From Brachycybe producta (lineage: Eukaryota; Arthropoda; Diplopoda; Playtdesmida; Andrognathidae), in contig JAUPFP010000001.1 of the NCBI GenBank assembly GCA_036925085.1, positions 20,547,229 to 20,611,228 on the forward strand: a stretch of DNA of 64,000 nt, written 5' to 3'. Positions within the stretch are counted from its first letter, which is position 1; each line of letters opens with the position of its first letter. A model generated the notes under the pieces. The model saw nothing but the letters and a program-made list of their open reading frames with translations. It ran no database searches and was not told where the DNA came from. The translations under genes were made by a program, and so were the position numbers. This document shows positions 3,137-63,037 of this stretch, in pieces.

Positions 3137-3538
3137 GTAATGTGACATTATTTTTTGAGAGGGTTTTGTACACATGAAAAACCGGAAAAAAGCAACATTA
3201 TTTCGGTGCAAATAATGTACATACAAACATATTGCATACAAACATACACACACTTATACCAAAAAAAAAAAAAAAAAAAAAATGGGGCAAATTTGATTAA
3301 AATTTCTCACAAAATTGAAGAAAATTTTTTTTTTTAATACAAAAATTACAATGCAGTTAGTTTAATCGTGATTAAAATAACTACAATAAAACAAAAATTG
3401 CAAGCTGAGTTTTTTTTCTTTTTATTATTTTTCACGACAAAAACATTGGAGTTTTCTTTATAATTTTTTTTGTTTGTTTCGAAATACGATGGATACCGTT
3501 TAACACGAAATGGAAACAGACAAAAAGGACTGGTTCAG

Positions 3539-3741
3539 ACAGGCAAGTGTATCCAGCAGTAGTTTTTCGTTTGTTCCCGCCCTTTTATGAGCGTCAGACC
3601 AAATATGAACCGATTAGAAATTGCTAAAGGCGTGACATGTGACATCAGACCAAATAACAAACCAATTAGAAATTGATGACGCTCAAAAAAAAAAAAGAGG
3701 GCGGAGCAAACGAAAAGCTAGTGCTGACTACACTTGCCTGT
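3539..3741. mobile_element. M3 fold-back MITE with perfect 9-bp TSD
   Basis: Begins ACAGGCAAGTGTATCCAGC and ends ACTTGCCTGT. Flanking duplications CTGGTTCAG (3530-3538 and 3742-3750) are identical. The interior carries CCGCCC and GGGCGGAGC arms plus ACCAATTAGAAATTG modules shared with families M1 and M2. Confidence 0.88.
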
Positions 3742-3753
3742 CTGGTTCAGACC

Positions 3754-3890
3754 ATGAAGTTAAAATAATGTAATATCCCCTCCCTTTTCTACTGCACATC
3801 TGCGCATATTCAGTTACTGAACTGTGCACATGCGCAGTAGAAAGACAGCGACTTTTACCTTAAACTGCATCCTCTTCATGATCTGAATGT
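3754..3890. repeat. Inverted repeat around TACTGCGCATG
   Basis: CTACTGCACATCTGCGCATA (about 3789-3808) pairs with GTGCACATGCGCAGTAG (3824-3840), flanked by outer arms ACCATGAAGTTAA and CTTCATGATCTG. Related text occurs at about 11130-11260. Confidence 0.55.
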
Positions 3891-4599
3891 GGATTTTTTT
3901 TGCAATTTAAATTATCAGATCGAAATTCCATTTTTTTTCTTCTCTCTTCCAACTGAGATCAATATTTCACTCTCACACAAACACACATACTCTCAAGTGA
4001 TCTGCTAGTTACTAGCAATGAGATCAATCATAATATTAAGTAAAAACATTCAATCTGATCTGATTTACTGCTTTTTTTTTTTGGTTTGTTTGTTTGTTTT
4101 AGCAAATTACAAATTTTATGCAAATGAGGAGGGAAGATATTTGTCTTTTAGATAAATTCTACTACATTACAATTTTTACACACCAACCTTTTAATTTATA
4201 CACACTTAACAAATTATCATCAATATTCTTATAATTGGAAGCCACATTCTTGTTCTTTTTTTTTACTCAAATCTTCTTAAACCCCCCCCCCCCCAAAAAA
4301 AGTACATTTTTCACTATGCCCTGAGTTCCCCTCTCTATCTCTATCTATCTATCTAAAATTACACTAAAATTTGATTTAATCATTTATGATCAATTAAAAA
4401 AAATGTTTAAATTTCTATCATATATCTGTATATCATTTTCTTATTAATGATAAAAAAAAGAATAGGAGCCTTGGTTTAATTGTTAATTAAATTGCTTAAT
4501 TTGTAACAGTGGTATACTTCAGAATGTAAAAAAAAGCAGAGATTTCACATTAAGAGGTGGATTTTGCCCATAATACCTCGTTTCCAATTACAACATTTA
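3891..4599. other. AT-rich DNA without a gene
   Basis: Short CA, TATC and TTTG microsatellites, a C run at about 4283-4295 and otherwise featureless AT-rich sequence. Confidence 0.6.
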
Positions 4600-5100
4600 A
4601 CTGCAGTTAAAAGTTAAGTTAACCATAGTTAATTTTTGAGTGAAAAAAACAAAATTTGGTTAAATTAACTAACAATTAAATTTGCCAACAACACAATTAA
4701 CTTGTTAGCTAGTTGAGAGCAATCCAAATTTGAAAGAAAAATACATTAATTCTGTTATAAAAATTAACTGTAGTTAAAATGATAACCACAGTTAATATTT
4801 GAGTGAAAAAACAAAATTTGGTTAAATTAACTAACAGTTAAATTTGAAAACAATAAAATTAACTTGTTAGCTAGTTGAGAGCACTCCAAATTTGAAAGAA
4901 AAATACATTATTTCTGTTATAAAAATTAACTGTAGTATTTTAAACTACAGTTAATTTCTGAGTGGAAACAAAACTTTGGTTTAAATAACCACAATTAAAT
5001 TTGGTTTAATTACCCACAGTTAAATTTGGCTTAACTAACCACAATTAAAGTATTCCACAAATACAATTAACTTAAAAGTATTGTTTCAATATAGTTAACC
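4600..5100. repeat. About 160-bp tandem repeat, two full units and decay
   Basis: The unit AGTTAATATTTGAGTG..AAAATTTGGTTAAATTAACT..AACTTGTTAGCTAGTTGAGA..TTCTGTTATAAAAATTAACT begins at about 4600, 4763 and 4924; the third unit is degraded. Rich in TTAACT and AGTTAA palindromic pieces. Confidence 0.7.
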
Positions 5101-5590
5101 ACATTACTGAATAGTTAAAAATGCCAATTTACTGTTTTGAAATCAAATTTGTCCTACAAAGAACATGGCAGCTAGTGAGAGCACTCAAATCTTTTTAAAA
5201 GTAACTATCCAAGTTGTTAGTATCCATCTAACAGCAACACAAAACAACTTAACAACAGTTAAGTGTTTTAAAAATCGAAACACATCAAAATGCACATTCT
5301 ATACCTTGACTGCAGTTAAATTTAATGCTAGTTAATATAACCAAAGTTATTTTTTTAATAGTGGTAATGAGGTAAAAAAATGTGAAATCACTGCTTAAAA
5401 TGGTATACCAGATGTAGTAATAATGATATGGATAAAAAAAAAGCTTTCAGTTTTTGACTTTTTAATATTTTATCCTAGTCTTCAAATAAAAGTTTAATTT
5501 TTATATATTTATTCAAATATTTCACTCATTATCATCAAAACATCAATCAAAATTAATTTAAATCAATTAAATATGAGAGCCGTTTTGCCT
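5101..5590. other. AT-rich DNA without a gene
   Basis: Continues AGTTAA-rich text of the preceding repeat, then featureless AT-rich sequence. Confidence 0.5.
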
Positions 5591-5594
5591 TTTT

Positions 5595-5672
5595 ACGGAG
5601 CCCTGTAAAGGACATGCGAGATTTTTTTTTTAAATCTCGACATTTCCACTTTAATCTCGAAATTTCGACTTT
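5595..5672. mobile_element. Left-end fragment of a hAT-like MITE
   Basis: ACGGAGCCCTGTAAAGGACA followed by ATCTCGACATTTCCAC matches the left end of the full copy at 61228-61619. The rest of the element is missing. Confidence 0.65.
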
Positions 5673-5992
5673 GCGTGTGTTTTGTGCTGTCAAACATTAT
5701 CAACCAGGGGGCAAGGAGGTTCATGCACTTAAAAGCAACAAAATTTGCATATGTATTCATTCATGCAACAAAAACAACTAAATATGCCGTTAAATATATG
5801 CGCTATAAAAAAATCTTATTCAAAATTTCACCCATGAAAATTAAATGTTTTATTAGAACTTAGATATTGCAATGGCAAACAAGCAACATTTTTTTTTTTA
5901 ATTTTCAAATTCGAAAATTCATCGATGTTTTGGTCAAAAAGTTTTAATATTTAGAAAAATTTCTCTCAACATCAAAGGATGTACAAGGAGCG

Positions 5993-6927: not shown

Positions 6928-7291
6928 ATGATCATCACTGTCATGTGACAGACAACTATCTACATTAATTCAAGACATGTAGACAGTTGCTGCTATCGTG
7001 AGAGTGGAACAGGCAGTTAGAAATCGGAGAGAACTTCAGTTGGCTCCGCCCTTGTTATGACGACCGGCAACTTCTAATTGGTTCGTTATGTAGTCTGACG
7101 TCACATGCTCCGCCCTTTTCAACGTCGAACCCACACACAACAAACCAATTAGAAGTTGCCGGTCGTCATAACAAGGGCGGAGCCAACTGAAGTTCTTCCC
7201 GATTTCTAACTGCCTGTGAGAGTGGACTATCACAACTTTCATGACAGCTACTCTCACGAAAGAAGAACTATCGGGCCACCGTGAAAACGAA
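6928..7291. mobile_element. Fold-back element with CTATCGTGAGAG arms, interrupted
   Basis: Read on the minus strand it matches the copy at 55191-55600: GTTTTCAC, then GAGAGTAGCTGTCATGAAAG, then ACGATAGCAGCAACTGTCTA. It is split by the M1 element at 7009-7217. Confidence 0.65.
7009..7217. mobile_element. M1 fold-back MITE, perfect 9-bp TSD
   Basis: Starts ACAGGCAGTTAGAAATCGG and ends TTTCTAACTGCCTGT, between identical GAGAGTGGA copies (7000-7008, 7218-7226). Near-palindromic arms contain GGCTCCGCCCTTGTTATGA and its complement. A perfect TGACGTCA lies at 7096-7103. It interrupts the fold-back element at 6928-7291, so it is the younger insertion. Confidence 0.92.
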
Positions 7292-7410
7292 GCTTTAATG
7301 ATTAAAAAAGTTTCGCACTCATTTTTGAGTTTTGATAATAAAAAAAAAAAGACTTCAATTCCTGGTTAAGTAAAATACTTCAACAAATACATGAAATTGA
7401 AACTAGGAGC

Positions 7411-9561: not shown

Positions 9562-10252
9562 CCAGGGGCAGTCAGAAAGTAAGTTGCACTAACTCAACTC
9601 GAAAAGGACAAGAAATTTTATAGTGCGACTATTTTTTACAGATTCATATTATTGGTCTTTTTATTCCCTAGAGTTATAAAGCCTGAAACACACACGCGGA
9701 ATTCCTCCAAGGAAAATGAAAATAGGAAAAGGAAAAAAAAAATCATTTTCTTTTTCTGTATCTCTGTTGTTCACACATAGAAACAGAAAAAGTAATGAGG
9801 AAAGTTGTGCGTGCCCTCTATTGAGCAAGAAAAGAAACAGTAACCAGCAGCTGGGAAACCAGCCTAGTGTGACTGCGCCATAACTGATAAAGAGACGAGC
9901 TCGAGACGAGAATCGATATCACTATCGATCTATTGATAATGGAAGTTCAAACAGTGTTACCTCAACCTCCCCATCAAAACATCTCGTCTAGGAGGAAAAT
10001 TAACAGGCAATTAGAAATCGGGACGAACAGAAGTTGGCACCGCCCTTTTTATGACGAACGCAACTTCTAATTGTTTGGTTATGTAGTCTGACGTCACCTG
10101 CTCCGTCCTTGTCAACGTCAAACCACACAACAAACCCAATTAGAAGTTGCCGGTCGTCATAAAAAAGGCGGAGCCAACTTCTGTTTGTCCCGATTTCTAA
10201 TTGCCTGTGGAAAATTATGACCATGTGCAACTTACTTTTTGACTGCCCCTCG
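9562..10252. mobile_element. Mariner-like element remnant
   Basis: Left end CCAGGGGCAGTCAGAAAGTA; the right end read inward on the minus strand is CGAGGGGCAGTCAAAAAGTA. TA dinucleotides flank both ends, and the following GTTGCAC also matches. This is the form of mariner termini. The interior holds a half copy of the AAGCCTGGAACAC element (about 9677-9840) and an M1 element, with no transposase frame. Confidence 0.75.
10003..10208. mobile_element. M1 fold-back MITE, perfect 9-bp TSD
   Basis: ACAGGCAATTAGAAATCGG to TTCTAATTGCCTGT, flanked by GGAAAATTA on both sides (9994-10002, 10209-10217). TGACGTCA is at 10089-10096. It lies within the mariner-like remnant. Confidence 0.92.
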
Positions 10253-10508: not shown

Positions 10509-10721
10509 ACAGGCAATTAGAAATCGAGAAAACAGAAGTTGGCTCCGCCCTTTTTTTATGACGAACGGCAACTTCTAATTTGTTGGTTATGTAGTCTGAC
10601 GTCACATACTCCGCCCTTTTCAACGTCGAACCACACACAACAAACCAATTAGAAGTTGCCATGGTCGTCATAAAAAGGGGCGGAGCCAACTTCTGTTCAT
10701 CCCGATTTCTAATTTGCCTGT
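10509..10721. mobile_element. M1 fold-back MITE
   Basis: ACAGGCAATTAGAAATCGA to TAATTTGCCTGT with the usual GC-box arms and TGACGTCA core. Both flanks are A-rich (CAAAAAAAC and AAAAAAAAA), so the duplication is only approximate. Confidence 0.85.
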
Positions 10722-12696: not shown

Positions 12697-12902
12697 ACAG
12701 GCATTTAGAAATCGGAGAGAACTTCAGTTGGCTCCGCCCTTGTTATGACGACCGGCAACTTCTAATTGGTTGGTTATGTAGTCGGACGTCACACACTCCG
12801 CCCTTTTCAACGTCGAACAACACAACAAACCAATTAGAAGTTGCCGGTCGTCATAAAAAGGGCGGAGCGAACTGAAGTTCTCCCCGATTTCTAAATGCCT
12901 GT
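12697..12902. mobile_element. M1 fold-back MITE, hybrid arms, no TSD
   Basis: ACAGGCATTTAGAAATCGG to CTAAATGCCTGT. The left arm has CCTTGTTATGACGACC (B type) while the right arm has CATAAAAAGGGCGG (A type). The flanks GTAGAAACA and GACGGTCCT do not match. The CRE-like core is changed to GGACGTCA. Confidence 0.85.
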
Positions 12903-34772: not shown

Positions 34773-37725
34773 ACGAATCGAGAGTCGAGAAATCAAATAC
34801 ACGACATTCGACTGCGTTCAACAATTGTCATGGTGAATTCAACAAGCCAAACACAACATCCCGAACACAAGAGACAGAAAAAGAAAAAAATATAAATATA
34901 AATATAAAGACAAGACATAGATAGACAGACAAAAGGTTGTTTTTAGAAAATACCTTTTCTAATTGATCACTGTTGGCAACTGCTGCAGCATTTGTCTGTT
35001 TGTTGGACGGTGGTACAACTTTCTTGTCGAACAATTCCTCCCATTCATCGGGAGTCTGTAAGTTAAGAAAGGAAAGGAAAAAACAAAACAAAACAAAAAA
35101 CAACATTAAGATGTTTGTCAACAACAATAGAAACAAAACAAATGAAGAAACAACCTGTTAAAAGCAATTTCTTTATAATACAATAAAATAGAATCTTTTT
35201 TTGTTTGTTTTGTTTTGTTTGTGGTCTTTTGGGTTTATTCGTGTCAATTCTCGAAGAAAACAAAGAAAAACTCAAAAGAGTTCGGAACAGAAAGCAAAAA
35301 AAAAAAAAAAAAAGGATGAAATTTAAGAAAAAACTTTCAAAAACAAAAGAAATTTCTTTTGTTTCGAGAGTTTTCTCTCTCTTAAATTTCATTCTTTTTT
35401 TTTCTTTTGAGTATCTTCGATGAAATATTTCCAAGGATCTTTTTTCTTCTTCTTCTTCTTCTTCTTTTTCTAGCCTCTAAGGGTCTCATGTGACAATAGA
35501 AATTAATTAAAACAATGTTTAGTTCAAGTTATAAAATAGAAAAACAACAACAACAAAAAAACAGAATTCAGAAGTTTTTCTCTATTTATCAATATCAATA
35601 AAGATGATTCTTTTAGTTTTGTCATCAAACACAATTATTATATATGTGAAAGTTCGTAAAAAAAAAAAAAGACCCTTCACTTAAGATGGCTGAAGAGCCT
35701 AGATAGACGTCCATCTTGTTGTTTTGAGCAGACGACAACGAGACAAATGAGTGTTCTTATATCGTGTTACTAAAACTGCAAGAAATCGCTTCACAATCGC
35801 TCAATTAAAATACAGTAAAGTGCAAAATGTAATAAAAAGTATTGTTCTTTAATTGCTCGATTTATATAATTTTTGAAAAGGTCCCTTCTATTTTTAAACA
35901 AGGTTCAAAATCGTTCGTTTTTTTGACCCCATGTTAAATCCCATTGGATCAAAAACCGTCCCACAAACATTTGAAAAACTCTCGTTAAAAACGATTTAAA
36001 ACAATAACAAAATAATTAGCACACACTTTCATGTATTGGCTTCACGATGTTTCCTTTTTATAAATTTTAAAAGGTCCTTCTATCTTTTAATAACGTGTAA
36101 AGTGGTACATTTTTTAACTCCATGTTTAAGTCCCATAGGAGCAAAATACCGTCCCGCAAACGTTAGACGAACTCTCTCATTAATACGATTTAGAACAACC
36201 AAAAAAATTAGCACGTGTTTTACGCCTGTTTATTGCCTTCACGATGAGTCTTTTTCGAAATTCTGAAAGGTCCTTCTATTTTTAAATAACATTTAAAGGC
36301 TTACGTTTTTTTTAACTCCATGTTAAGTCCCATAGGACCAAAAAACCTTCACCCAAACATTTGAAGAACTCCCATTAAAAACGACTTAGAACAATCACAT
36401 AATAATGAGCACGTGCATTAATCTACTGGCTTCACAATGTTTTCTTTTTATAAGATTAGAACGCGAAATTATTTTTCTACTAATTATTGTGTGACTTCAA
36501 ACCAGGAGAAAAATCGTTAAAAAACCGGTTTTTTCAATCAAAAACGATCGCAGCGCCTACGTTCGGAGAAATTTTGAACTAAACACTGTATCTAGGCTCT
36601 TAATAGATATTTATTGTTTTGTCACCCTCCCCCACCCCTGGATGGCGCCACTGCAGTGGCTAATGCTAACCTCCATAGGTTTTTTTTTTAAAAAAGATAA
36701 TTTGGATTAGCCCAATGTGCTGCACAAATCTGATAATGCGTTTGAACCGGTTAGTCAAGATAGACGAACTGATCAGAACCGGTTCAATCCACATGCAATT
36801 AGAAATCGGGACAAACAGAAGTTGGCTCCGCCCTTTTTGTGACGACCGTCAACGTCTAATTGGTTTGTTGTGTGGTTCCACGTTGAAAATGGCGGAGCAT
36901 GTGACGTCAGACTACATAACCAACCCAATTAGAAGTTGCCAGTCGTCATAAAAAGAGCGGAGCCAACTTCTGTTTGTCCCGATTTCTAATTGCCTGTGGT
37001 TCGAACCTGGTTACCAATATGCATTAGCAGATTTGCGCAGCACGTTAGTTAGAGGTAACGCACGGTAGAACCGAACCGAATTACTAGCGTTAGCCCACTG
37101 GGAACTTCCGTGAGCATATGTGCATCGCAGCTTTTCAGCCCTGACGAAAACGTAATTACCTGAAAGTGAGGCGGCCACGCTTTGCAAAGAACTAGCTAAC
37201 ATGCCGAGAAACTAGCTTATCCAGTGCTTTCCCTAAAATTGGTAAGAAGCAGCAGATGGGATGAACTCGAGTCCAACCATTTTTTTTTAGCCAGCCAGCC
37301 ACAACAGGCATCTGTAGACAGCTTCACAATTTCTTTGGCTCCGCCCTTTTATGAGCGTCATCAATTTCTAATTGGTTTGTTAGTGGATCTGATGTCACAT
37401 GCCCAGCCCTTTTTTATTTCTAATTGGTTGATATTTGGTCTTGACGCTCGTAAAAGGGGCGGAGCCAAAGAAATTCTGAAGCTGTCTACAGATGCCTGTG
37501 CCAGCCACAATACCCAAGAAGGCTTCCTTCCCTCCACTTGCTCGCAGCACAGTGGCTTGTGGCGTTCGTAACCCACCTGTGTGAATTTGTCCACCATCGG
37601 CCGTCCACAGTATGTGTGCAAGTGATCACGAGGCCATTGCCCATTCAGGTAAATCGTGTCCAAGGAAGCCGTCCTCCTTATATTCGGAGAAGCGTTCGAC
37701 TTGAAATTCAATGTCTTTGATTTTT
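28571..37725 (-). CDS. FAM117B-like: FAM117/GLCCI1-family gene, six exons, 5' end not found
   Basis: Exons in transcript order are 37577-37725, 34954-35055, 32440-32706, 31516-31762, 29791-29917 and 28571-28775. All five introns (2521, 2247, 677, 1598 and 1015 bp) are GT-AG, and the reading frame holds through phases 0, 0, 0, 1 and 2. The joined product has 364 complete residues before a TAG stop. Blocks in order are IRRTASLDT/GQWPRD, DKFTQT, a short helical SDQLEKIRQRLQRSKEST, RNSVEGLNQ, PDGHRAP, NVDTQTP and REPPDGCERVK. From memory these match vertebrate GLCCI1, FAM117A and FAM117B in the same order, and NSVEGLNQ with PDGHRAP favours FAM117B. Family proteins are largely disordered, Ser/Pro-rich and without a known enzyme domain; GLCCI1 has been reported to bind the dynein light chain LC8. 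The vertebrate protein has a long low-complexity N-terminus, which is missing here. Family assignment is secure; the exact paralogue is inference. Confidence 0.92.
28899..29669. mobile_element. Fold-back element filling the last intron
   Basis: AAAGAGACCATTACCTCCAG with AAATTTCTTGTC at the left is inverted at the right as TTTCTGGAGGTAAATGGTCT. It occupies most of the intron between exons e and f and itself contains an M1 insertion. Confidence 0.75.
29315..29507. mobile_element. M1 fold-back MITE, perfect 9-bp TSD
   Basis: ACAGGCAATTAGAAAACGG to CTAATTGCCTGT between identical ATACTTTTG copies (29306-29314, 29508-29516). TGACGTCA at 29413-29420. It lies in the last intron of the FAM117-like gene. 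Confidence 0.93.
29791..29917 (-). CDS. FAM117B-like: FAM117-like exon e (REPPDGCERVK)
   Basis: A 127-nt exon, too short to stand out as an open frame. The acceptor is AATTTGTAG before 29917 and the donor is TCGAG|GTAAGAAAC at 29790. It encodes DSKSASPEPSE, a short linker, and AREPPDGCERVKIVEES, almost identical to the family's most conserved block (REPPEGCERVKVFEE). It enters in phase 1 and leaves in phase 2, and both join their neighbours without breaking the frame. The donor lies about 20 bp from an AT-rich hairpin at 29692-29765. Confidence 0.9.
30366..31370. repeat. About 300-bp unit in three copies
   Basis: The unit (AACTCAAGTGTTTCAAGACA, AAACCATTTATGCAACTTTT, AATTTCACAAGCAATTCCAT, TTTTTGTTTTGTCTCG) begins at about 30411, 30628 and 31009. 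The second and third add ACAAAACAAAACCCAAATTT and TTTTGTCTTGAGTA. It lies in the intron between exons d and e; a 190-codon plus-strand frame across it is not a gene. Confidence 0.8.
31516..31762 (-). CDS. FAM117B-like: FAM117-like exon d (PDGHRAP and second TQT)
   Basis: A 247-nt exon; the acceptor is GTTTGCAG before 31762 and the donor is AAAAG|GTACGC at 31515. It encodes PIHEPTPDGHRAP, a short arginine-containing linker, NVDTQTPSG, a Ser-rich low-complexity stretch (SSQSASPASNCHSVSP) and DVQYEK. The donor is phase 1: the final G joins AT of the next exon to give Asp, producing QYEKDDSKS, which parallels the family's RDKDSGSSSP. A long reading frame on the plus strand over this exon is its antisense shadow. 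Confidence 0.9.
32440..32706 (-). CDS. FAM117B-like: FAM117-like exon c (helix and NSVEGLNQ)
   Basis: A 267-nt exon of 89 codons, phase 0 at both ends. The acceptor is CTTGCAG before 32706 and the donor is CAG|GTTTAT at 32439. It opens with IRQRLQRSKESTRH, which continues the basic amphipathic segment begun in exon b (family form LRQQLQRSK). SPVHGDHSAI follows, corresponding to SPFHGNHAAI-type text in FAM117B. A Pro-rich disordered stretch comes next and the exon closes with RNSVEGLNQ. The last block is the best hint that this is the FAM117B type. Confidence 0.9.
32815..33285. repeat. Three related CTGCTCAGAGAGTTCAAGTTGAAG segments
   Basis: GAGAACCCTGCTCA..GAGTTCAAG and CTTCAGCTTGAAGCCTCTCG plus ACAAGGCTTCCAA recur at about 32815, 32980, 33080 and 33250. 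Tandem decay within the intron between exons b and c. Confidence 0.65.
33286..33719. other. Intronic AT-rich DNA without a gene
   Basis: Long A and T runs, no coding or repeat structure beyond that. Confidence 0.5.
33720..34090. repeat. Dispersed repeat, copy 1
   Basis: AGCATCATATTGACCCAC, TTGAGTTGTTCGACCCAC, CAGACATCC and TTCTTGCATGAT..TATACC occur in the same order at 39625-39830. ACAC and CATA microsatellites lie within this copy. Confidence 0.65.
34185..34645. repeat. 36-bp repeat arranged as alternating dimers
   Basis: Two unit types alternate: TTCTTTCTGTTTTGAGGTGC with GCTTTCTTTGCGCTA, and TTCTTTCTATTTTCAAGTGC with GCTTTCTTCGCGCTA, giving a 72-bp higher-order period over about six repeats. 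It lies in the intron between exons b and c. Confidence 0.85.
34716..34773. repeat. (GA)n microsatellite
   Basis: Almost pure AG dinucleotides, about 29 repeats with one AAAG interruption. Confidence 0.95.
34954..35055 (-). CDS. FAM117B-like: FAM117-like exon b
   Basis: A 102-nt exon of exactly 34 codons. The acceptor is CTTACAG before 35055 and the donor is AAAAG|GTATTT at 34953. It encodes TPDEWEELFDKKVV, then an Asn/Ala-rich stretch, then SDQLEK. In vertebrate relatives the equivalent segment reads TQT-x-x-W-A-E-E and ends SADQLKEIAK, so the Trp-Glu-Glu and DQL features are conserved while the middle has diverged. Both ends are phase 0. Confidence 0.88.
35693..36602. mobile_element. TTAA-flanked GAGCCTAGATA element, copy 2
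   Basis: GAAGAGCCTAGATAG to GTATCTAGGCTCTTAA. It carries three tandem modules of about 190 bp (AAAGGTCCTTCTAT..TTCACGATG..CTTTTTATAA) where copy 1 has one. It lies within the intron between exons a and b. Confidence 0.8.
36713..37048. mobile_element. GTGCTGCACAAATCTG fold-back element, interrupted
   Basis: GTGCTGCACAAATCTGATAA at the left is inverted as GCATTAGCAGATTTGCGCAG at the right. Interior AACCGGTTC palindromes are shared with 62230-62820. Split by the M1 element at 36791-36997. Confidence 0.65.
36791..36997. mobile_element. M1 fold-back MITE in intron a-b
   Basis: ACATGCAATTAGAAATCGG (one change in ACAGGC) to TCTAATTGCCTGT. The flanks GGTTCAATCC and GGTTCGAACC agree at 8 of 10 positions. 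Contains TGACGTCA. Confidence 0.87.
37304..37499. mobile_element. M2 fold-back MITE, 10-bp TSD, near exon a
   Basis: ACAGGCATCTGTAGACAGC to GTCTACAGATGCCTGT, flanked by GCCAGCCACA on both sides (37294-37303, 37500-37509); the flank is itself GCCA-repetitive, so the length is 9-10. It ends 77 bp before the donor of exon a. Interior has CCGCCC / GGGGCGGAGCC arms. Confidence 0.88.
37577..37725 (-). CDS. FAM117B-like: FAM117-like exon a (most 5' exon found)
   Basis: The acceptor is a pyrimidine-rich tract ending TTTTCAG at 37726, and the donor is CAG|GTGGGT at 37576. The exon is 149 nt: it starts with the last two bases of a split codon and then encodes 49 residues. The block IRRTASLDT followed by GQWPRD is the family signature; the RRTAS core suits a basophilic kinase. 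The exon ends ...DKFTQ in phase 0, so the next exon's first Thr completes KFTQT. The first codon is split, so at least one further coding exon must lie at higher coordinates; I could not identify it. Confidence 0.9.
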
Positions 37726-38792: not shown

Positions 38793-38927
38793 GGGGGTTA
38801 AAAAAAACTAAATAAAATATTGATAATTATTTTTTTTACTTTGCAAGCAGCAGAGAAGGCCTGTGGCAGAGAGACAGAAAAATCTAATTGCAGTTTGCAA
38901 TAATTTCGATTAATGTATTTGTACATT

Positions 38928-39087
38928 ATTATGACAAACGCAACTTCTAATTGGTTGGTTATGTAGTCTGCCGTCACCATGCTCCGCCCTTTTCAACGTC
39001 GAACCACACAACAAACCAATTAGAAGTTGCCGGTCGTCATAAACAGGGCGGAGCCAGCTTGTGTTCGTCCCGATTTCTAAATGCCTG
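38928..39087. mobile_element. M1 MITE, left end missing
   Basis: Starts inside the left arm (ATGACAAACGCAACTTCTAA) and runs to CTAAATGCCTGT. The left terminus is lost. Confidence 0.8.
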
Positions 39088-39471
39088 TCTTTTGTGTTCT
39101 GAGACATTTAGAATTGTAAATTTTAAGTAAACTTTTATGTTCCGACCCCCTAAAGGTATATATATCATCTACATATTGATTAAAATAGGATACAAACAAA
39201 CCGAAACAGTTTCAAAAAAAAACCTCCTTCTATTTTTCTTATTTAAACCTATATATGAGTTTAGGTCACCGACTGCATAATTAATACATGATGATGATGA
39301 TGATGATCTATCCATTGAGAAACCCGTCCAAAAACACATCTAAAAATGTTTTTTTGTTTACATAATTTGTCACATATGTTAACATTTTAATGTTCATTCA
39401 ATTAAGCAAAAGTAAATATTTTTCATTTAAAGTTTTCAGGTTGAATTTTTGCTCAAAAACCTCCCTAAAGC

Positions 39472-41600: not shown

Positions 41601-42109
41601 AACTGTTATTGTGACCCTTTAATCTGTCTCCCGAATGCAATTATATGAAGTTTCTCTCACATGAAACTTTTTAAGTGGCTCTTATGAGTTTATATTGGTT
41701 TTTGAAGTTTTTCTTTCTCTAAAAAGAAAAACATTTTATGAATTCACAAATCAATGAAAATTTACATTAAAAACTTAATGGCATTGTTATGTTGTTCAAA
41801 AGTGGACAAACAATATTCAATATAACATTAACAGGCAAAGACAAACAATAAACTTCTTTTTTTTGTTGTCATTTGTGAAATGCTCAGAAATACACTGCAG
41901 AGTATTATTCATGGCTAAAAATACTCTGAAAACATTAGGTAAGAGTGGTTTCAAGGTAAGAGTTAATTTTGACACTAGTTGCAGAGTTTCGATCATCGAG
42001 CTTTTTAAAGTAAGGTGACCATACTACAGGTTTGACCAGGGCAGTACTGTTTTCAGAATGCTTGTCCCAGTATTGTCCTGAAAGAATGCCTAAAATAACG
42101 CATTTGTAC
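41601..42109. other. DNA without a gene
   Basis: Nothing recognised beyond AT-rich sequence. Confidence 0.5.
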
Positions 42110-42315
42110 ACAGGCAGTTAGAAATCGGTCAGAACTTAAGTTGGCACCACTCTTGTTACGACGACCGGCAACGTCTAATTGGCTGGTTATGTAGTCTGGC
42201 GTTGAAAAGGGCGGAGCATGTGACGTCAGACTACATAACCAGCCAATTAGAAGTTGCCGGTCGTCATAACAAGGGCGAAGAAAACTGAAGTTCTAATCGA
42301 TTTCTAACTGCCTGT
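42110..42315. mobile_element. M1 fold-back MITE, perfect 9-bp TSD
   Basis: ACAGGCAGTTAGAAATCGG to TTTCTAACTGCCTGT between identical CATTTGTAC copies (42101-42109, 42316-42324). Both sides of the core carry GGCTGGTTATGTAGTCTG or its complement, so the palindrome is longer than in most copies. Confidence 0.93.
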
Positions 42316-42513
42316 CATTTGTACTGGGTTTCAAATTTTTTGCTCAAAATATCCATGATAATTGACCAAAAGTCCAAAAATGTGTGCTGCCATCTAGTGT
42401 CTATTAATTCATTTTGAAAACTGTCTGTCACATTCAGACTTTTAGCACAAAATCTCTATTCTGTGCTTATAGTTTGAGGCTGTTGATATATAACTGATAT
42501 AGTTAATGTGAGA

Positions 42514-42936
42514 ACAGGCGATTAGAAATCGGGACAAACAGAAGTTGGCTCCGCTCTTTTTATGACAACCGGCAACTTCTAATTGGCTGGTTATGTAGTC
42601 TGACGTTGAAAAGGGCGGAGCATGTGACGTCAGACTACATAACCAATCAATTAGAAGTGCCGGTCATCATAAAAAGGACAAAGCCAACTTTTGTTACACA
42701 TAGTTAGAAATAGGTGAAAACTTCAGTTGGCTCCGCATTTGTTATGACGACTGGCAACTTCTAATTGGCTGGTTATGTAGTCTGACGTTGAAAAGGGCGG
42801 AGCATGTGACGTCAGACTTCATATAACCAGCCAATTAGAAGTTGCCAGTCGTCATAACAAGGGCGGAGCCAACCCGAAGTTTTCACCTATTTCTAACTAC
42901 CTGTACTTCTGTTCGTCCCGTTTTCTAATTGCCTGT
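42514..42936. mobile_element. M1 MITE interrupted by a second M1 MITE
   Basis: Outer copy: ACAGGCGATTAGAAATCGG to TTCTAATTGCCTGT with identical AATGTGAGA duplications (42505-42513, 42937-42945). Its right arm is split by the inner element at 42696-42904. Confidence 0.9.
42696..42904. mobile_element. Inner M1-type MITE nested in another
   Basis: ACACATAGTTAGAAATAGG to CCTATTTCTAACTACCTGT. Flanks ACTTTTGTT (42687-42695) and ACTTCTGTT (42905-42913) are the 9-bp duplication of outer-element sequence, 8 of 9 matching. Subtype with GGTGAAAACTTCAGTTGGC arms like 62823-63028. Confidence 0.9.
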
Positions 42937-42945
42937 AATGTGAGA

Positions 42946-43419: not shown

Positions 43420-43700
43420 GGTCAGTTGTAGTTGAGACATCCTCGACATGTCGACTTTAATCTAGACATGTCGACTTTATTCTCGACATGTCGACTTTTA
43501 ATCTTTTATTCGGCCATGTTGCGCGCACCATACTCTAATAAATAAATTATTGCAAGCGCCCTCTTGTAGCAGCAATAATTTAATTATTAGAGTATGGTGT
43601 GTAAAACATGGCATAATTAACATGGCCGAATAAAAAAAATTAAAAGTCGACATGTCGAGAATAAAGTCGACATGTCGAGATTAAAGTCGACATGCAGGGC
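43420..43700. mobile_element. hAT-like fold-back MITE, central part
   Basis: GTCGACATGTCGA repeats flank a core GCACCATACTCTAATAA / TTATTAGAGTATGGTG inverted repeat, matching the core of 61228-61619. The matching right terminus appears about 730 bp on (44428-44484), so the element was split by later insertion. Confidence 0.7.
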
Positions 43701-47142: not shown

Positions 47143-47337
47143 ACAGGCATCTGTAGACAGCTTCAGAATGTCTTTGGCTCCGTCCCTTTATGTGCGTCAC
47201 ACCAAATATCAACCAATTAGAAATAAAAAGGACGGGGCATGTGTGACATCAGACCCAGTAACAAACCAATTAGAAATTGATGACGCTCACAAAAGGGCGG
47301 AGCTTAAGAAATTCTGAAGCTGTCTACAGATGCCTCT
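47143..47337. mobile_element. M2 fold-back MITE
   Basis: ACAGGCATCTGTAGACAGC to TGTCTACAGATGCCTCT (terminal change). The flanks CTACTTGAAG and CTGCTCGAAG match at 8 of 10. Confidence 0.82.
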
Positions 47338-47436: not shown

Positions 47437-47618
47437 ACAGGCAATTAGAAATCGGAACGAGCAGACGACCTGCAGCTTCTAATTGGTTTGTTGTGTGGTT
47501 CGACATTGAAAAGGAAGGAGCATGTGACGTCAGACTACATAACCAATCAATTAGAAGTTGCGTTCGTCATAAAAAGGGCGGAACCAACTTCTGCTCGTCC
47601 CGATTTCTAATTACCTGT
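47437..47618. mobile_element. M1 fold-back MITE, short left arm
   Basis: ACAGGCAATTAGAAATCGG to TTCTAATTACCTGT with flanks GGCCCGAAG (47428-47436) and GGCCCGAGA. The left arm lacks the CCGCCC segment. It is inserted in a GC-rich CGAGGCCCGA region. Confidence 0.87.
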
Positions 47619-48163: not shown

Positions 48164-48357
48164 ACAGGCATCTGTAGACAGGTTCAGAATTTCTTTGGCT
48201 CCGCCCTTTTATGAGCGTCATCAATTTCTAATTGGTTTGTGGCTGAGTTTGATGTCACATGCCCCGCCCTTTTTTATTTCTAATTGGTTGATATTTTGTC
48301 TGACGTTCATAAAAGGGCGGAGCCAAAAAAAATCTGAAGCTGTCTACAGATGCCTGT
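48164..48357. mobile_element. M2 fold-back MITE
   Basis: ACAGGCATCTGTAGACAGG to TGTCTACAGATGCCTGT with the usual CCGCCC / GGGCGGAGCC arms. The flanks CCATAAGAA and TATTAAGAA match at 6 of 9. Confidence 0.85.
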
Positions 48358-49090: not shown

Positions 49091-49233
49091 ACAGGCAAGT
49101 GTGCCCAGCATTAGAATTTCTTTTCCTCCGGCCTTTTATGACGTCAGACCAAGTAACAAACCCAATTAGAAATTGATGACGTTCATAAAAGGGCGGAGCA
49201 AAAGAAATTCTAATGCTGGGCACAATTGCCTGT
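49091..49233. mobile_element. M3 fold-back MITE, shortened
   Basis: ACAGGCAAGTGTGCCCAGC to GCTGGGCACAATTGCCTGT with GGGCGGAGC in one arm. The flanks GCAAAATTC and GATAAACTG do not match. Confidence 0.82.
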
Positions 49234-49750: not shown

Positions 49751-50234
49751 CAGGGTGTCTCATAAGTGGAGAACTTATTGAACTTATAGGAGGTTTTCAA
49801 ACGAGACACTTCCACCGTTTTGTTACTAGTGGCAGTGGTAGGTTTAGGTTTTGTTGCGTGGGGGGGGGGGGGGGATAAGAGAATTTGAAGGGGATGATGC
49901 AAAGAGAATTTCAAGACATGCCAGTTAGAAATCAAAGAGAACTTCAGTTGGCTCCGTCCTTGTTATGACGACCGGCAACTTCTAATTGGGTTTGTTGTGT
50001 GGTTCGACGTTGAAAAGGGCTGAGCATTTAACGTCAGACTACATAACCAACCAATTAGAAGTTGCCGGTCGTCATAACAAGGGTGGAGCCAACTGAAGTT
50101 CTCCCCGATTTCTAACTGCCTGTAACGCATGTTGCACATTTGTGATCTTGAAGTGGACCCGGCCAAAGTGAAAAGCTTTTTAGTTTTGCTTTTCAGTTAT
50201 TATTCCTATAATACTGAACTTATATGACACCCTG
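49751..50234. mobile_element. Mariner-like MITE hosting an M1 element
   Basis: CAGGGTGTCTCATAAGTGGA to CTTATATGACACCCTG, with TA on both sides. The inner inverted arms TTGAACTTATAGGAGG and CCTATAATACTGAACT extend the match. No transposase. Confidence 0.78.
49916..50123. mobile_element. M1 fold-back MITE, no clear TSD
   Basis: ACATGCCAGTTAGAAATC to TTTCTAACTGCCTGT, GC-box arms present. The core CRE is changed to TAACGTCA. The flanks AATTTCAAG and AACGCATGT do not match. Confidence 0.83.
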
Positions 50235-50877: not shown

Positions 50878-51287
50878 ACAGGCAAGTGTGCCCAGCAGTA
50901 AAAGTTTGACAGGCAATTAGAAATCGGGACGAACTTCAGTTGGCTCCGCCCTTTTTATGACGAACGCAACTTCTAATCGGTTGGTTATGTAGTCTGACGT
51001 CACATGCTCCGCCCTTTTCAACGTCAAACTACACAACAAACCAATTAGAAGTTGCCGGTCGTCATAAAAAGGGCGGAGCTAACTGAAGTTCGTCCCGATT
51101 TCTAATTGCCTGTAAAGTTTTTTTAGCTCCGCCCTTTTATGAACGTCAGACCCAAATATCAACAAATTAAAAATTGAAAACGGGCGGGGCATGTGACATC
51201 AGACCCAGTAACAAACCAATTAGAAATTGATGACGCTCATAAAAGGGCGGGGCAAACAAAATCTTAGTGCTGGGCAGAACTGCCTGT
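50878..51287. mobile_element. M3 fold-back MITE interrupted by an M1 copy
   Basis: ACAGGCAAGTGTGCCCAGC to GCTGGGCAGAACTGCCTGT. The left arm is split after GTAAAAGTTT, and the text resumes AAAGTTTTTTTAGCTCCGCC after the inner element. Confidence 0.88.
50909..51113. mobile_element. Inner M1 MITE within M3
   Basis: ACAGGCAATTAGAAATCGG to TTCTAATTGCCTGT. The flanks share AAAGTTT. A mixed subtype: A-type CCTTTTTATGA arm with the B-type AACTTCAGTTGG. Confidence 0.9.
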
Positions 51288-53731: not shown

Positions 53732-53861
53732 AGAATTATGTAGTTTGACATCACATGCTCCGCCATTTTCAACGTCGAACCATGCAACAAACCAATTAGA
53801 AGTTAACGGTCATAAAAAGGGCTGAGCCAATTGACGTTCTCTCCTATTTCTAACTGCCTGT
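53732..53861. mobile_element. M1 MITE, left arm missing
   Basis: TTATGTAGTTTGACATCACA to TTTCTAACTGCCTGT; the left third is replaced by unrelated sequence. Confidence 0.78.
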
Positions 53862-54292
53862 CTCAGAAAGTGGTTATAACTCAAGTTACACTTGATGGAT
53901 TCGCCTGAAATTTTCAACATAAACAGAGCATCTTATATTATAAAATTCTGCTGGGCAGAATTTTTTTTCTTAAAAAGATAAAAATTAAAAAAAAATTAAA
54001 AACTGGAAAATGACCGTTTCATAATTATAGCTAATGAACTTTTCACTTTTATTAATTGTTGTGACAAAATAACATGCTGAACACAACAGTAACATTAAAG
54101 TTACTAAGGTATACGACTGCCCTAATGTTTTATAACTTAAAACATTTTTTTCTACATACTTTGAACAATATTTATAAGCAAATTTACATAAATTCTGCCC
54201 CAAAATGAGCTAAAATGGCACTTTTTAGCTCTGCTATTGTAGTATAATCATGGCAATCGGCTTAATCATCATGTATGATGATATCTCAAAAG
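53862..54292. other. AT-rich DNA without a gene
   Basis: No repeats or coding signal recognised. Confidence 0.5.
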
Positions 54293-54498
54293 ACAGGCAG
54301 TTAGAAATCTGAAAGAACTTCAGTTGGCTCTGCCCTTGTTATGACGACCGGCAACTTCAAATTGGTTGGTTATGTAGTCTGACATCACATGCTCTGCCCT
54401 TTTCAATGTCGAATAACACACCAAACCAATTAGAAGTTGCCAGTCGTCATAACAAGGGCGGAGCCAACTGAAGTTCTCCCCGATTTCTAACTGCCTGT
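54293..54498. mobile_element. M1 fold-back MITE, 8-9-bp TSD
   Basis: ACAGGCAGTTAGAAATC to TTTCTAACTGCCTGT with CTCAAAAG on both sides (54285-54292, 54499-54506); a ninth base is ambiguous because T is shared with the terminus. The core is TGACATCA, a one-base change of the CRE-like palindrome. Confidence 0.9.
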
Positions 54499-54883
54499 CT
54501 CAAAAGTTCTTTGCACAATTTAAGTCTGGGGACATGCCGGCCTTTCAAGAGTGGTGACATTTTCGTTTCGAAACTATTTGTTCCTTAGGTAGCTGGAGCA
54601 ACGGGTGCATTTTCTTGCTCGAATACTAAGCTAACACTAGGGAATCGACTTTAGTAGGTCAGTAAATACTCTCATAACACTGTCTGATAACAATATTATT
54701 TTTTGGCTGAAATGAAGGCAAAGCTTCTCCTTCCAAAGGCACTAAACAATTCTCATATCGTTAGGCTCCCACCTTGTGGTTTTTATTTTTCTTCTTCATA
54801 TTATAAGGATGTGAGCATTAAACCACAGTATTTTTCTTAAAATTTTGACAGTGTCTTTGAAACACGCACCTTAGTTTTTAACT

Positions 54884-56461: not shown

Positions 56462-56469
56462 TTCTAGAT

Positions 56470-57717: not shown

Positions 57718-57914
57718 ACAGGCATCTTCTGTAGACAGCTTCAGAATTTCTTTGGCTCCACCCTTTTATGAGTGTCATCAATTTCTAATTGGTTTGTTAC
57801 TTGGTCTGATGTCACACGCCCTTCCCTTTTTTATTTCTAATTGGTTGATATTTCATCTGACGCTCATAAAAGGGCGGAGGCAAAGAAATTCTGAAGCTGT
57901 CTACAGATGGCTGT
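57718..57914. mobile_element. M2 fold-back MITE
   Basis: ACAGGCATCTTCTGTAGAC to GTCTACAGATGGCTGT; both ends carry small changes. GGGCGGAGGC arm present. Confidence 0.82.
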
Positions 57915-59016: not shown

Positions 59017-59020
59017 ACAG

Positions 59021-59226
59021 AGAGGCATTTAGAAATCGGGAACAACATAAGTTGGCTCCGCCCTTTTTTATGACGACAGACAACTTCTAATTGGTTTGTT
59101 GTGTGGTTCGACGTTGAAAAGGGCGGAGCATGTGACATCACACTACATAACCAACCAATTAGAAGTTGCGTTAGTCATAAAAAGGGCGGCGGCAACTTAT
59201 GTTCTTCCCAATTTCTAATTGCCTGT
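59021..59226. mobile_element. M1 MITE, left member of a pair
   Basis: AGAGGCATTTAGAAATCGG (left tip altered) to TTCTAATTGCCTGT. Core CRE changed to TGACATCA. Confidence 0.85.
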
Positions 59227-59238
59227 TTTTTTGTGCAC

Positions 59239-59445
59239 ACAGGCAATTAGAAATCGGAACAAACAGATGTTGGCTCCGCCCTTTTTTATGACGACCGGCA
59301 ACTTCTAATTGGTTTGTTGTGTGGTTCGACGTTGAAAAGGGCGGAGCATGTGACATCACACTACATAACCAACCAATTAGAAGTTGCATTCGTCATAAAA
59401 AAGGGCGGAGCCAACTTATGTTCTTCCCGATTTCTAAATGCCTGT
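59239..59445. mobile_element. M1 MITE, right member of a pair
   Basis: ACAGGCAATTAGAAATCGG to TTCTAAATGCCTGT, 12 bp after the previous copy and in the same orientation, again with TGACATCA. Confidence 0.88.
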
Positions 59446-59614
59446 CTGAATCCAGGGATAGGCAACCCAACCAAGGAACACACCAGTAACATTGGGCGCG
59501 TTCAGTTCCTAAGTACCGCTTTTTGTTGCCCTCGTTGCTCGTTTGAGGCCGCTCGCAATAAGTGCCCAAAAGCAAAATGAACGCATCAAGAGGTTTCCAT
59601 TTAGCATCTAAGCG

Positions 59615-61219: not shown

Positions 61220-61227
61220 AGCCATTT

Positions 61228-61619
61228 ACGGAGCCCTGTAAAGGACATGCGAGATTTTTTTTTAAAAAATCGACATTTCCACTTTTTCCAGAATCTCGAC
61301 ATTTCGACTTTAATCTCGAAATTTCAACTTTTAATCGCTTTTATTCGGTCATATTAATTATGCCATGTTGTGCGCACCATACTCTAATAATTAAATTATC
61401 GCTGCTACAAGAGGGCGGTTGCAATAATTTCATTATTAGAGTATGGTGCGCACAATATGGCATAATTAACATGACCGAATAAAACAGATTAAAAGTCGAA
61501 ATGTCGAGATTAAAGTCGAAATGACGAGATTTTGGAAAAAAGTCGAAATTTCGAGATTTAAAGTCGAAACGTCGAGATTTAAAAAAAAAAAATCTCGCCT
61601 GTCCTTTACAGGGCTCCGT
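61228..61619. mobile_element. hAT-like fold-back MITE, perfect 8-bp TSD
   Basis: ACGGAGCCCTGTAAAGGACA to TGTCCTTTACAGGGCTCCGT, identical AGCCATTT duplications (61220-61227, 61620-61627). Arms are built of AAGTCGAAATGTCGAGATT repeats, core GTGCGCACCATACTCTAATA. Relatives at 5595-5672 and 43420-44484. Confidence 0.92.
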
Positions 61620-61803
61620 AGCCATTTATTTGAAAAGTCAAAACTTTTTTTTGCAACAAATTTCAAACAAACAAATTACTAAGTTTGTCTCAAAAACAAA
61701 ATAAACAGAAAAAGAAAAAATTGTTTACAGAACTTTTTTGTAAACAACTTCAAGAAGAGACATTTAAATTTTGTTGAAAACTAGAAAAGTAAAAAGAATG
61801 CGT

Positions 61804-62028
61804 GAAGCTGCTCGCCGACTAGGTCAGTGACGCGGCGCGGCGCGGAGAAAAAACGGCTCCCAAACAAAATGAATGTAAAAGAATTAAGCACCGTCCATTA
61901 GGGCGGAAGCGCGGAAAAGTGCGGCACCGCACCGCTCTGGAGAAAGTCTGGAACTTCTTGTTAGCTGCTCGCCCACTAGATCGGTGCCGTGCCGCAAAGC
62001 GTCACCGATCTAGTGGGCGAGCAGCTTT
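61804..62028. mobile_element. Fold-back element, copy D3
   Basis: AAGCTGCTCGCCGACTAGGT to GATCTAGTGGGCGAGCAGCT with GACGCGGCGCGGCG-type interior; same family as 24832-25643. Confidence 0.75.
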
Positions 62029-62266
62029 ATAGTTAATTAAAGTTAAAGAAAGTATTTTCCCCAGTGCCACAGTAGAGACACCGGTCGCACGCTCTGGTCG
62101 CCAGTCGCGTTCGCGTCAAAAGAACAGCTCAAGAAACTGCTCTTAGGTTTAGCATAAGCCACATTCTAAATTCTTCAAACAAAGACGACGTTTTTAAAGT
62201 GTCAACGTTCTTTTGCTTAATTCAAGCCAAATCCAACTCTCAAATCTGAATGAAGTAGAGATGTGA

Positions 62267-62440
62267 ACGGTTCGCCAATTACTGGAACTGATAGAACCGG
62301 TTCGCCAATCACTGGAACTGATAGAACCGGTTCGCCAATCACTGGAACTGATAGAACCGATTCGCCAATCACTGGAACTGATAGAACTGGTTCGCCAATC
62401 ACTGGAACTGATAGAACCGGTTCGCCAGTATAGGTCAACT
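62267..62440. repeat. 30-bp minisatellite, about six units
   Basis: ACTGGAACTGATAGAACCGG with TTCGCCAATC repeats six times. GAACCGGTTC is a perfect palindrome in most units. The antisense frame with period VLSVPVIGEP is an artefact. Confidence 0.93.
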
Positions 62441-62822
62441 GTTAAGAACTGGTTCCGAACAGAGTAGAAACGGTTCCATTATACACTTTGTCGCCTCTAA
62501 CCCTAACGTGCTGCTCAAATCTGCTAATTCATATTGGGAACCGATTCAAAACTGTTTGGAACAGTTCGTCGATCTTGACGAACCGGTTCAAACGCATTAG
62601 CAGATTAGCACATTAGACTAATTAATGTGCTGCACAAATCTGCACATAATTCGCAGGGGAATATTGCGCCTCATTTTCAGCGCAAATCTGCTAATGCATA
62701 TTGGAAATCGGTTTGTACCGGTTCGTCAATCCCGTCGAACTGATCAGAACCGTTTCCTCCACGACCCTCCCCCCCTTTCCCCCAAAAAATCCGCTAATCG
62801 ATTAAACCGGTTCCGAACCGAA
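62441..62822. repeat. AACCGGTT-rich fold-back DNA
   Basis: Two blocks with GTGCTGC(A/T)CAAATCTGC ends and GAACCGGTTC-type text, related to 36713-37048; the second block is interrupted by the M1 element that follows. Confidence 0.6.
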
Positions 62823-63028
62823 ACAGGTTCTTAGAATTAGGTGAAAACTTCAGTTGGCTCCGCCCTTGTTATGACGACAGACAACTTCTAATTGGCTGGT
62901 TATGAAGTCTGACGTTGAAAAGGGCGGAGCATGTGAAGTCAGACTTCATAACCAGCCAATTAGAAGTTGTCGGTCGTCATAACAAGGGCGGAGCCAACTG
63001 AAGTTTTCACCTAATTCTAACAACCTGT
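62823..63028. mobile_element. M1-type MITE, 9-bp TSD
   Basis: ACAGGTTCTTAGAATTAGG to CTAATTCTAACAACCTGT, flanked by CGAACCGAA (62814-62822) and CGAACCGAG (63029-63037). Arms GGTGAAAACTTCAGTTGGC as in 42696-42904; a long palindrome. Confidence 0.9.
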
Positions 63029-63037
63029 CGAACCGAG

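What the first reader, a model, noticed from the sequence alone, without database searches (positions are those of the whole stretch)
3530..63037. Abundant Mutator-like fold-back MITEs with 9-bp target duplications
Twenty-four elements of about 200 bp (16 M1 including two truncated, four M2, three M3, plus one M1 found only as the inner nested copy) share ACAGG..CCTGT termini. Identical 9-bp duplications are seen at 3530, 7000, 9994, 29306, 42101 and 42505, with 8-of-9 matches at 42687 and 62814. A 9-bp duplication with long inverted arms fits the Mutator superfamily better than hAT (8) or mariner (TA). Density is about one per 2.7 kb.
Basis: partly seen in the sequence, partly recalled or inferred. 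Interest (0 to 1): 0.75.

Follow-up and report, generated by a model that had tools for sequence, protein, structure and literature searches.

The report
Abundant hairpin mini-transposons, probably Mutator-type
The window is full of roughly 200-base hairpin-shaped DNA parasites that usually duplicate 9 bases of target when they insert; they exist in many thousands of copies genome-wide and look like ordinary passengers of a Mutator-type transposon whose full-length driver was not found.

Summary
Real and of an ordinary kind, on a large scale. The window holds 25 related fold-back elements (reader: 24): 18 M1, 4 M2, 3 M3. Genome-wide (295.3 Mb) M1 ends number 22,420 (backward control 89), M2 2,998 (control 1), M3 9,697 (control 7): about 17,500 copies. 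Over 69 tabulated rows, exact duplications are 9 bp in 20, 8 bp in 5, 10 bp in 3, none in 41; flanks paired across copies gave no 9-bp match in 4,692. That fits Mutator (8-11 bp) better than hAT, mariner or Merlin. No autonomous partner was found: in 17 stretches covering all 21 PF10551 hits no pair of M-type ends with a duplication brackets a gene. PF20700 transposases (53 hits) are a barely tested candidate. Between M2 and M3 the core is better kept than the outer 25 bp, and an element's two arms resemble each other more than other elements' arms. New member of a known kind.

The parts
3530..3750 (.). M3 element 3539-3741 with exact 9-bp duplication CTGGTTCAG on both sides
7000..7226 (.). 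M1 element 7009-7217, exact 9-bp duplication GAGAGTGGA; closest of 49 copies to the M1 consensus (1.0% divergence)
9994..10217 (.). M1 element 10003-10208, exact 9-bp duplication GGAAAATTA
10509..10721 (.). M1 element; A-rich flanks, so a duplication cannot be read
12697..12902 (.). M1 element without a recognisable duplication
29306..29516 (.). M1 element 29315-29507, exact 9-bp duplication ATACTTTTG; both arms of the AAAACGG subtype
36791..36997 (.). M1 element; 10-bp flanks 8 of 10 alike
37294..37509 (.). M2 element 37304-37499 with exact 10-bp duplication GCCAGCCACA
38926..39088 (.). M1 element lacking its left arm
42101..42324 (.). M1 element 42110-42315, exact 9-bp duplication CATTTGTAC
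42505..42945 (.). M1 element 42514-42936, exact 9-bp duplication AATGTGAGA, interrupted by a second M1
42687..42913 (.). Inner M1 42696-42904, 8-of-9 duplication; without it and one 9-bp copy the outer element is 205 bp and matches the 206-bp consensus at 176 of 206 columns with one gap column
47143..47337 (.). M2 element; 10-bp flanks 8 of 10 alike
47437..47618 (.). M1 element (182 bp); 9-bp flanks 7 of 9 alike
48164..48357 (.). M2 element; 9-bp flanks 6 of 9 alike
49091..49233 (.). M3 element, 143-bp type; shares flanking DNA with copies in L034 and L036, so it lies in a larger repeat
49916..50123 (.). M1 element with a damaged left end
50878..51287 (.). M3 element interrupted by an M1
50909..51113 (.). 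M1 inserted in the M3; 8-bp flanks 7 of 8 alike
53736..53861 (.). M1 element lacking its left arm
54285..54506 (.). M1 element 54293-54498 with exact 8-bp duplication CTCAAAAG
57718..57914 (.). M2 element
59021..59445 (.). Two M1 elements (59021-59226, 59239-59445) 12 bp apart; neither has its own duplication, but GAATCCA lies within 3 bp of both outer ends, so they may have moved as one unit
62814..63037 (.). M1-related element 62823-63028, 8-of-9 duplication, arms 98% complementary although 13% from the M1 consensus; folds at -106 kcal/mol as single-stranded DNA (z -26)

Best explanation
M1, M2 and M3 are subfamilies of one superfamily of non-autonomous, fold-back miniature inverted-repeat transposons. 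Each is little more than two long inverted arms joined by a short middle, ending ACAGGCA...TGCCTGT. A Mutator-type DDE transposase supplied in trans is inferred to cut at these ends and insert the element with a staggered cut of 9 bp (sometimes 8 or 10), giving the duplications. Shown: the ends, arms, duplications, nesting with an empty-site reconstruction, end counts. Inferred: the transposase type and the cut-and-paste step.
For: Duplications: exact 9 bp in 20, 8 bp in 5, 10 bp in 3 of 69 tabulated rows; with one mismatch allowed 27 at 9 bp; flanks paired across different copies, 4,692 pairs, gave 0 at 9 bp either way. Empty site: removing the inner M1 and one 9-bp copy from 42514-42936 leaves a 205-bp M1, 176 of 206 columns identical to the consensus with one gap column. 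Counts: 22,420 M1 ends, 2,998 M2 ends, 9,697 M3 ends with backward controls of 89, 1 and 7. Two copies of a MULE-coding element in the same genome (L033 2187-6380, L032 3614-7786, 99.5% identical) have other ends but 9-bp duplications, one exact and one 8 of 9. Published MULE duplications are 8-11 bp (PMC6446971, passages seen); mosquito Muta1 makes 8 or 9 bp (PMC5225508, passages); nematode Tm1 is a Mutator/Foldback family with 9 bp and MITE-like members (PMC3169594, passages).
Against: No autonomous element with these ends was found: none bracketed by a pair of ends with a duplication in the 17 stretches that cover all 21 PF10551 hits; that search reads exons singly, so a transposase split by introns could be missed, and flanks held were as short as 0.2 kb on one side (L042). 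PF00872 gave 0 matches. PF20700 gave 53, but only the upstream side of one copy was sampled (20 windows of 35 bp) and nothing M-like appeared. 41 of 69 rows have no exact duplication of 7-12 bp, 30 of 69 none with up to one mismatch at 8-10 bp.
Confidence: 0.77

Rival explanations
1. A Rehavkus-like Mutator lineage (Pfam PF20700), rather than a PF10551 MULE, supplies the transposase. This is a variant within the Mutator reading, not against it.
For: 53 PF20700 matches, 12 of them covering nearly the whole domain in open frames of 686-980 aa without stops; Rehavkus is tabulated with 9-bp duplications and 26-400 bp arms (PMC6446971, table passage). That PF20700 corresponds to Rehavkus-type elements is recalled.
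Against: 20 windows of 35 bp upstream of one copy (C134:76330-77789) show nothing like M1-M3 above shuffled scores. For the copy at C1:220193 no exact M1 end is listed before C1:356494, and the nearest listed exact M2 and M3 ends (C1:223453 and 225697) point away from it.
Confidence: 0.2
2. The elements are driven by a hAT transposase that makes irregular duplications.
For: hAT dimerisation domains are abundant in this genome (at least 149 matches, 150 of 350 candidates scored); 5 of 28 exact duplications are 8 bp.
Against: 9 bp is the mode, 20 of 28.
Confidence: 0.05
3. Merlin (IS1016-like) MITEs, which also make 8- or 9-bp duplications.
For: Duplication length overlaps: 8 or 9 bp (PMC8101967, passages seen).
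Against: Merlin ends are conserved 5'-GG (same passages); these begin ACAGG. 10-bp duplications occur (3 of 28). The search for the Merlin domain PF12762 did not complete, so its presence in the genome is unknown.
Confidence: 0.03
4. Not transposons but copies of a larger repeat, or hairpin RNA genes.
For: Very stable hairpin; the 143-bp M3 copies in the window, L034 and L036 share flanking DNA, so those are copies of a larger repeat.
Against: Exact short duplications at 28 of 69 rows; a nested copy with a reconstructible empty site; no Rfam family matches the window at gathering scores.
Confidence: 0.01

Closest known systems
Tm1 Mutator/Foldback family of root-knot nematodes, MITE-like Tm1-ML members (PMC3169594, passages seen)
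   Same: 9-bp duplications, fold-back arms, mostly short non-autonomous members, one or no coding copy left, a likely crossover copy without duplication
   Different: Tm1-ML is given as 30 of 39 copies, with a Phantom-like transposase identified by shared ends; here thousands of copies and no partner found. No sequence comparison with Tm1 was made.
Muta1 of Aedes aegypti and its derivatives (PMC5225508, passages seen)
   Same: Mutator-like, 8- or 9-bp duplications, long arms (145 bp), called a type 2 Foldback, over 300 putative non-autonomous copies
   Different: Muta1 arms are built of 12-bp tandem repeats and its transposase is known; no tandem array is reported inside the M elements of the window
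Galileo of Drosophila mojavensis (P superfamily; PMC3573991, passages seen)
   Same: Subfamilies with different arms, chimeric copies with arms of two subfamilies and non-matching flanks, copies with arms of one subfamily and the centre of another
   Different: 7-bp duplications, P-element transposase, arms averaging 668 bp
MULE genes of this genome with C2H2-like and SWIM-like motifs (L030, L031, L033, L034, L039; motifs by eye), reminiscent of the Ghost and Spectre rows of PMC6446971 (table passage; no tree made)
   Same: Same genome; the L032/L033 element makes 9-bp duplications
   Different: L032/L033 ends are ACTAGCGT; separate M-type copies lie near several of these genes but no pair of M-type ends with a duplication brackets one

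Membership tests
MITE (miniature inverted-repeat transposable element) | Short, without a long reading frame, terminal inverted repeats, high copy number | tested here: met
   143-213 bp for uninterrupted window copies with both ends; arm pairs listed; about 35,000 ends genome-wide
MITE (miniature inverted-repeat transposable element) | Target-site duplication at independent insertions | tested here: met
   28 of 69 rows exact at 8-10 bp, 39 of 69 with at most one mismatch; cross-paired control 2 of 4,692 exact and 10 of 4,692 with one mismatch
Mutator superfamily | Duplications of 8-11 bp, often 9 | tested here: met
   exact 9 bp in 20, 8 bp in 5, 10 bp in 3 of 69 rows; range from PMC6446971, passage
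Mutator superfamily | Long terminal inverted repeats | tested here: met
   M-type arm pairs among the 25 longest inverted repeats shown of 38 run from 47 to 95 nt at 78-98% complementarity; some MULEs have short arms or none, so the feature is not exclusive
Mutator superfamily | Autonomous relative with the same ends and a MULE or Mutator transposase | tested here: inconclusive
   PF10551: none in 17 stretches covering 21 hits; PF20700: 53 hits, one flank of one copy sampled
hAT superfamily | 8-bp duplications | tested here: not met
   9 bp is the mode, 20 of 28 exact
Merlin superfamily | Terminal 5'-GG | tested here: not met
   ends are ACAGG; feature from PMC8101967, passage
Tc1/mariner | TA duplication | tested here: not met
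   flanks

The most novel reading that the evidence does not exclude
The conserved unit is the core, not the ends: a promoter-like cassette (GC-box, CCAAT and TGACG-type motifs; motif names recalled) is carried by M1, M2 and M3 alike while the outer 25 bp are exchanged as matched pairs, by recombination between copies in the shared core. One non-autonomous chassis could so be taken up by successive transposases and spread portable regulatory sequence through the genome. Against it: within M2 the ends are better kept than the core, and the perfect TGACGTCA site of M1 is absent from the M2 and M3 rows counted; the second point made me lower the probability from 0.15 to 0.13.
Probability: 0.13. 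Interest if true: 0.55.

Novelty: new member of a known kind. Interest (0 to 1): 0.33.

Why it matters
It adds a large fold-back MITE superfamily of probable Mutator type, most likely in an animal. If the core-versus-end pattern holds in full genome data, it is a clean case for testing how non-autonomous elements outlive their transposase by changing ends. Practically, thousands of 200-bp near-perfect hairpins can complicate assembly and annotation of this genome (inference).

Tried and rejected
Autonomous partner: PF10551 (21 hits in 17 stretches, flanks of 0.2 to about 6 kb, no pair of M-type ends with a duplication round a gene). The C89/C43 MULE genes (L030, L031, L034) first looked promising because M1 and M3 pieces abut them, but the right-hand M3 end in L031 belongs to a fragment of another repeat and no duplication brackets the gene. 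PF00872: none. PF20700: 53 hits, one flank of one copy sampled, nothing. PF12762: not completed.

Viral contigs: one exact end match (L070) lies inside a 685-aa open frame of a 7,066-base viral contig; beyond 20 bases nothing of M1 is there; taken as chance. Rfam: no match at gathering scores. A paper search for six sequence strings listed eight papers, none on such elements by title and abstract start. Other paper searches. Of papers only the passages named in the report were seen; no whole paper was read.

Self-nesting: M1 copies sit inside other M elements at 42696, 50909, in L037 and, judged by eye from the flanks, L062, but the window is rich in elements and only 1 of the 20 copies L050-L069 is so placed; not claimed as a preference. 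Chromosome pattern: listed exact M2 ends on C1 are scarce between 8.25 and 19.1 Mb (8 of 75 after merging) while hAT hits are not (23 of 37; Fisher p 3e-8), but listed M3 ends go on at similar density to 9.1 Mb where that list stops, and lists may be capped; only noticed.

Known flaws in my tables: labels the 3539 element M2 (it is M3) and has one row (L037 6116-6356) pairing ends of different nested copies; the pooled figures include that row, and the M2 rows include the 3539 element. Family-by-family duplication tallies are therefore not used. The window's reading frames were not compared with protein families.
Full report
What was checked. The window lies at C1:20547229-20611228 of an unnamed 295.3-Mb assembly of 442 contigs. 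It has seven open frames of 150 aa or more under the bacterial code with ATG, GTG or TTG starts, several of them in tandem repeats; no frame of the window was compared with protein families. The two best relatives of a MULE protein from the same genome are from a spider and a firefly, both at 36% identity, so an animal host is likely (inference); the species was not determined.

The elements. The ends occur 29 times with up to 3 mismatches against 0.06 expected. Searching with the cores of M1 and M2 finds 25 elements: 18 M1, 4 M2, 3 M3 (M2 and M3 told apart by their ends). Uninterrupted copies with both ends are 143-213 bp and fold back on themselves; the M-type arm pairs shown run from 47 to 95 nt at 78-98% complementarity. 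One element folds at -106 kcal/mol as single-stranded DNA, 26 standard deviations below shuffles. The M1 consensus is 206 bp; 49 copies lie 1-15% from it, median 5.9%.

Duplications. Pooled over the window and the loci held, 69 rows: exact 9 bp in 20, 8 bp in 5, 10 bp in 3, none of 7-12 bp in 41; with one mismatch allowed, 27 at 9, 9 at 8, 3 at 10, none in 30. Pairing left flanks with right flanks of other rows (4,692 pairs) gave no exact 9- or 10-bp match, one of 8 and one of 12; with one mismatch, 9 at 8 bp, 1 at 10 bp and 0 at 9 bp. Two nested arrays outside that table carry exact 9-bp duplications: 42514-42936 in the window and L037 6151-6539. Taking the inner M1 plus 9 bp out of 42514-42936 leaves a 205-bp M1, 176 of 206 columns identical to the consensus with one gap column. 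Twenty of the rows (L050-L069) were chosen by similarity to the copy at 7009, so they are biased to well-kept ones.

Copy number. Ends genome-wide: M1 exact 9,192 with backward control 0; M1 up to 3 mismatches 22,420, control 89; M2 up to 3 mismatches 2,998, control 1; M3 up to 2 mismatches 9,697, control 7; the M2/M3 core motif 7,265, control 0. Halving the end counts gives about 17,500 elements, about 1% of the genome (inference). M1 ends in the window are about six times the genome average. M3 counts include 143-bp copies, at least three of which share flanks and so count a larger repeat.

Search for a driver. PF10551 gave 21 hits. The 17 ten-kb stretches that cover them contain M-type MITEs, in L031, L034 and L039 on both sides of the gene, but no pair of ACAGGC ends round a transposase with matching ends and a duplication. 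In the longer loci held and the window, only two long pairs (320-12,000 bp) had both a duplication and matching ends, and both are nested MITEs; 13 pairs had a duplication regardless of the match of their ends. One MULE family (L032, L033; about 4.2 kb, 99.5% identical) has ends ACTAGCGT and 9-bp duplications, exact in one and 8 of 9 in the other; its 784-aa protein has a C2H2-like finger near the start and a SWIM-like motif near the end by eye. The C89/C43 genes (736-747 aa) match PF10551 over its cut-off, PF21056 (ZSWIM1-3 RNaseH-like) over its cut-off in L030 and L031 but not L034, and C2H2 models only below their cut-offs. PF00872: none. PF05699 (hAT): at least 149 matches. PF20700: 53 matches, 12 of them nearly whole domains in open frames of 686-980 aa; 20 windows of 35 bp upstream of one showed a minisatellite-like stretch but no M-type sequence. 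PF12762 could not be searched.

Structure across families. In the consensus alignment M2 and M3 run almost identically through the core but agree only in the first seven bases and scattered positions of the outer 30. Over individual copies (6 M2, 7 M3; 42 comparisons) the ends 8-32 are 54% alike and the core 78%; within M2 the ends are 95% and the core 88% alike, within M3 62% and 73%. So between families the core is better kept than the ends, while within M2 it is the reverse, as expected of ordinary MITEs. Arms of one element are closer than arms of different elements: 52 M1 pairs, mean distance 0.077 against 0.164, 0 of 200 shuffles as low; without L050-L069, 32 pairs, 0.094 against 0.190; 9 of 61 elements were dropped because an arm end was not found at the expected place. 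Subfamilies with matched arms explain at least part of this; ongoing arm-to-arm conversion is possible but not shown. For M2 alone own arms are no closer than others (0.947 against 0.952 identity), for M3 they are (0.749 against 0.618). Chimeras exist: L037 6740-6933 has an M3 left end and an M2 right end, L030 about 3314-3455 joins an M3-like left part to an M1 right arm, L047 9008-9199 has two M1 arm types.

Motifs. Per M1 copy (53 rows) there are 2.4 CCGCCC/GGGCGG, 1.9 CCAAT/ATTGG and 3.5 TGACG/CGTCA against 0.07, 0.45 and 0.37 in shuffled copies; M2 (6 rows) 1.7, 1.7 and 1.8; M3 (5 rows) 1.2, 1.2 and 0.8. The perfect TGACGTCA averages 0.72 in M1 and 0 in the M2 and M3 rows. Copies are related, so this shows ancestry, not selection. 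That MULE arms can carry promoters is recalled from maize MuDR, not read here.

Comparison. Mutator duplications are 8-11 bp and arms often long (PMC6446971, passages). Tm1 in nematodes is the nearest described case that I found of a Mutator fold-back family reduced mostly to MITE-like copies (PMC3169594, passages); Muta1 is a described active animal relative (PMC5225508, passages); Galileo is a precedent for chimeric copies and for ends of one subfamily with the centre of another (PMC3573991, passages). Merlin is set aside by its 5'-GG ends (PMC8101967, passages). No database of repeats such as Repbase was available, so whether M1-M3 already have names is unknown.

Verdict. Observation confirmed; Mutator assignment probable but resting on duplication length and architecture; a new, very abundant member of a known kind.

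Noticed in passing
C1:7310128, 7326281, 7351104, 7367257, 7392080: M2 ends repeat at an exact spacing of 40,976 bp, which points to a tandem duplication of about 41 kb.
   Followed up: no
C1 8.25-19.1 Mb: Listed exact M2 ends are scarce there while hAT hits are common; the window lies in the rich block beyond it. Listed M3 ends do not show the drop up to 9.1 Mb, where that list stops.
   Followed up: partly
L032 3614-7786 and L033 2187-6380: An element of about 4.2 kb with a MULE transposase (PF10551), ends ACTAGCGT and 9-bp duplications; two copies 99.5% identical, so probably moved recently.
   Followed up: partly
C107, C259, C49, C134 (two), C47, C119, C1:14974405, C385, C148, C3, C1:220193: Twelve intact-looking PF20700 Mutator-type transposase frames; 1.0-1.4 kb upstream of the domain in one (C134) lies a minisatellite-like stretch of ACACATGCACACGTG type.
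   Followed up: partly
L030 about 3314-3455, L037 6740-6933, L047 9008-9199: Chimeric elements whose two arms belong to different families or subfamilies.
   Followed up: partly
window 59021-59445: Two M1 copies 12 bp apart lacking own duplications, with GAATCCA close to both outer ends; possible joint transposition.
   Followed up: partly
window 61283-61540 and 43447-43694: Two further long inverted repeats (120-nt arms 92%, 61-nt arms 97%) that the M1 and M2 core search did not hit.
   Followed up: no
window 8522-9180 and 23496-24046: Tandem arrays of 24-bp and 20-bp units (28 and 27.5 copies, 90% and 97% matches).
   Followed up: no
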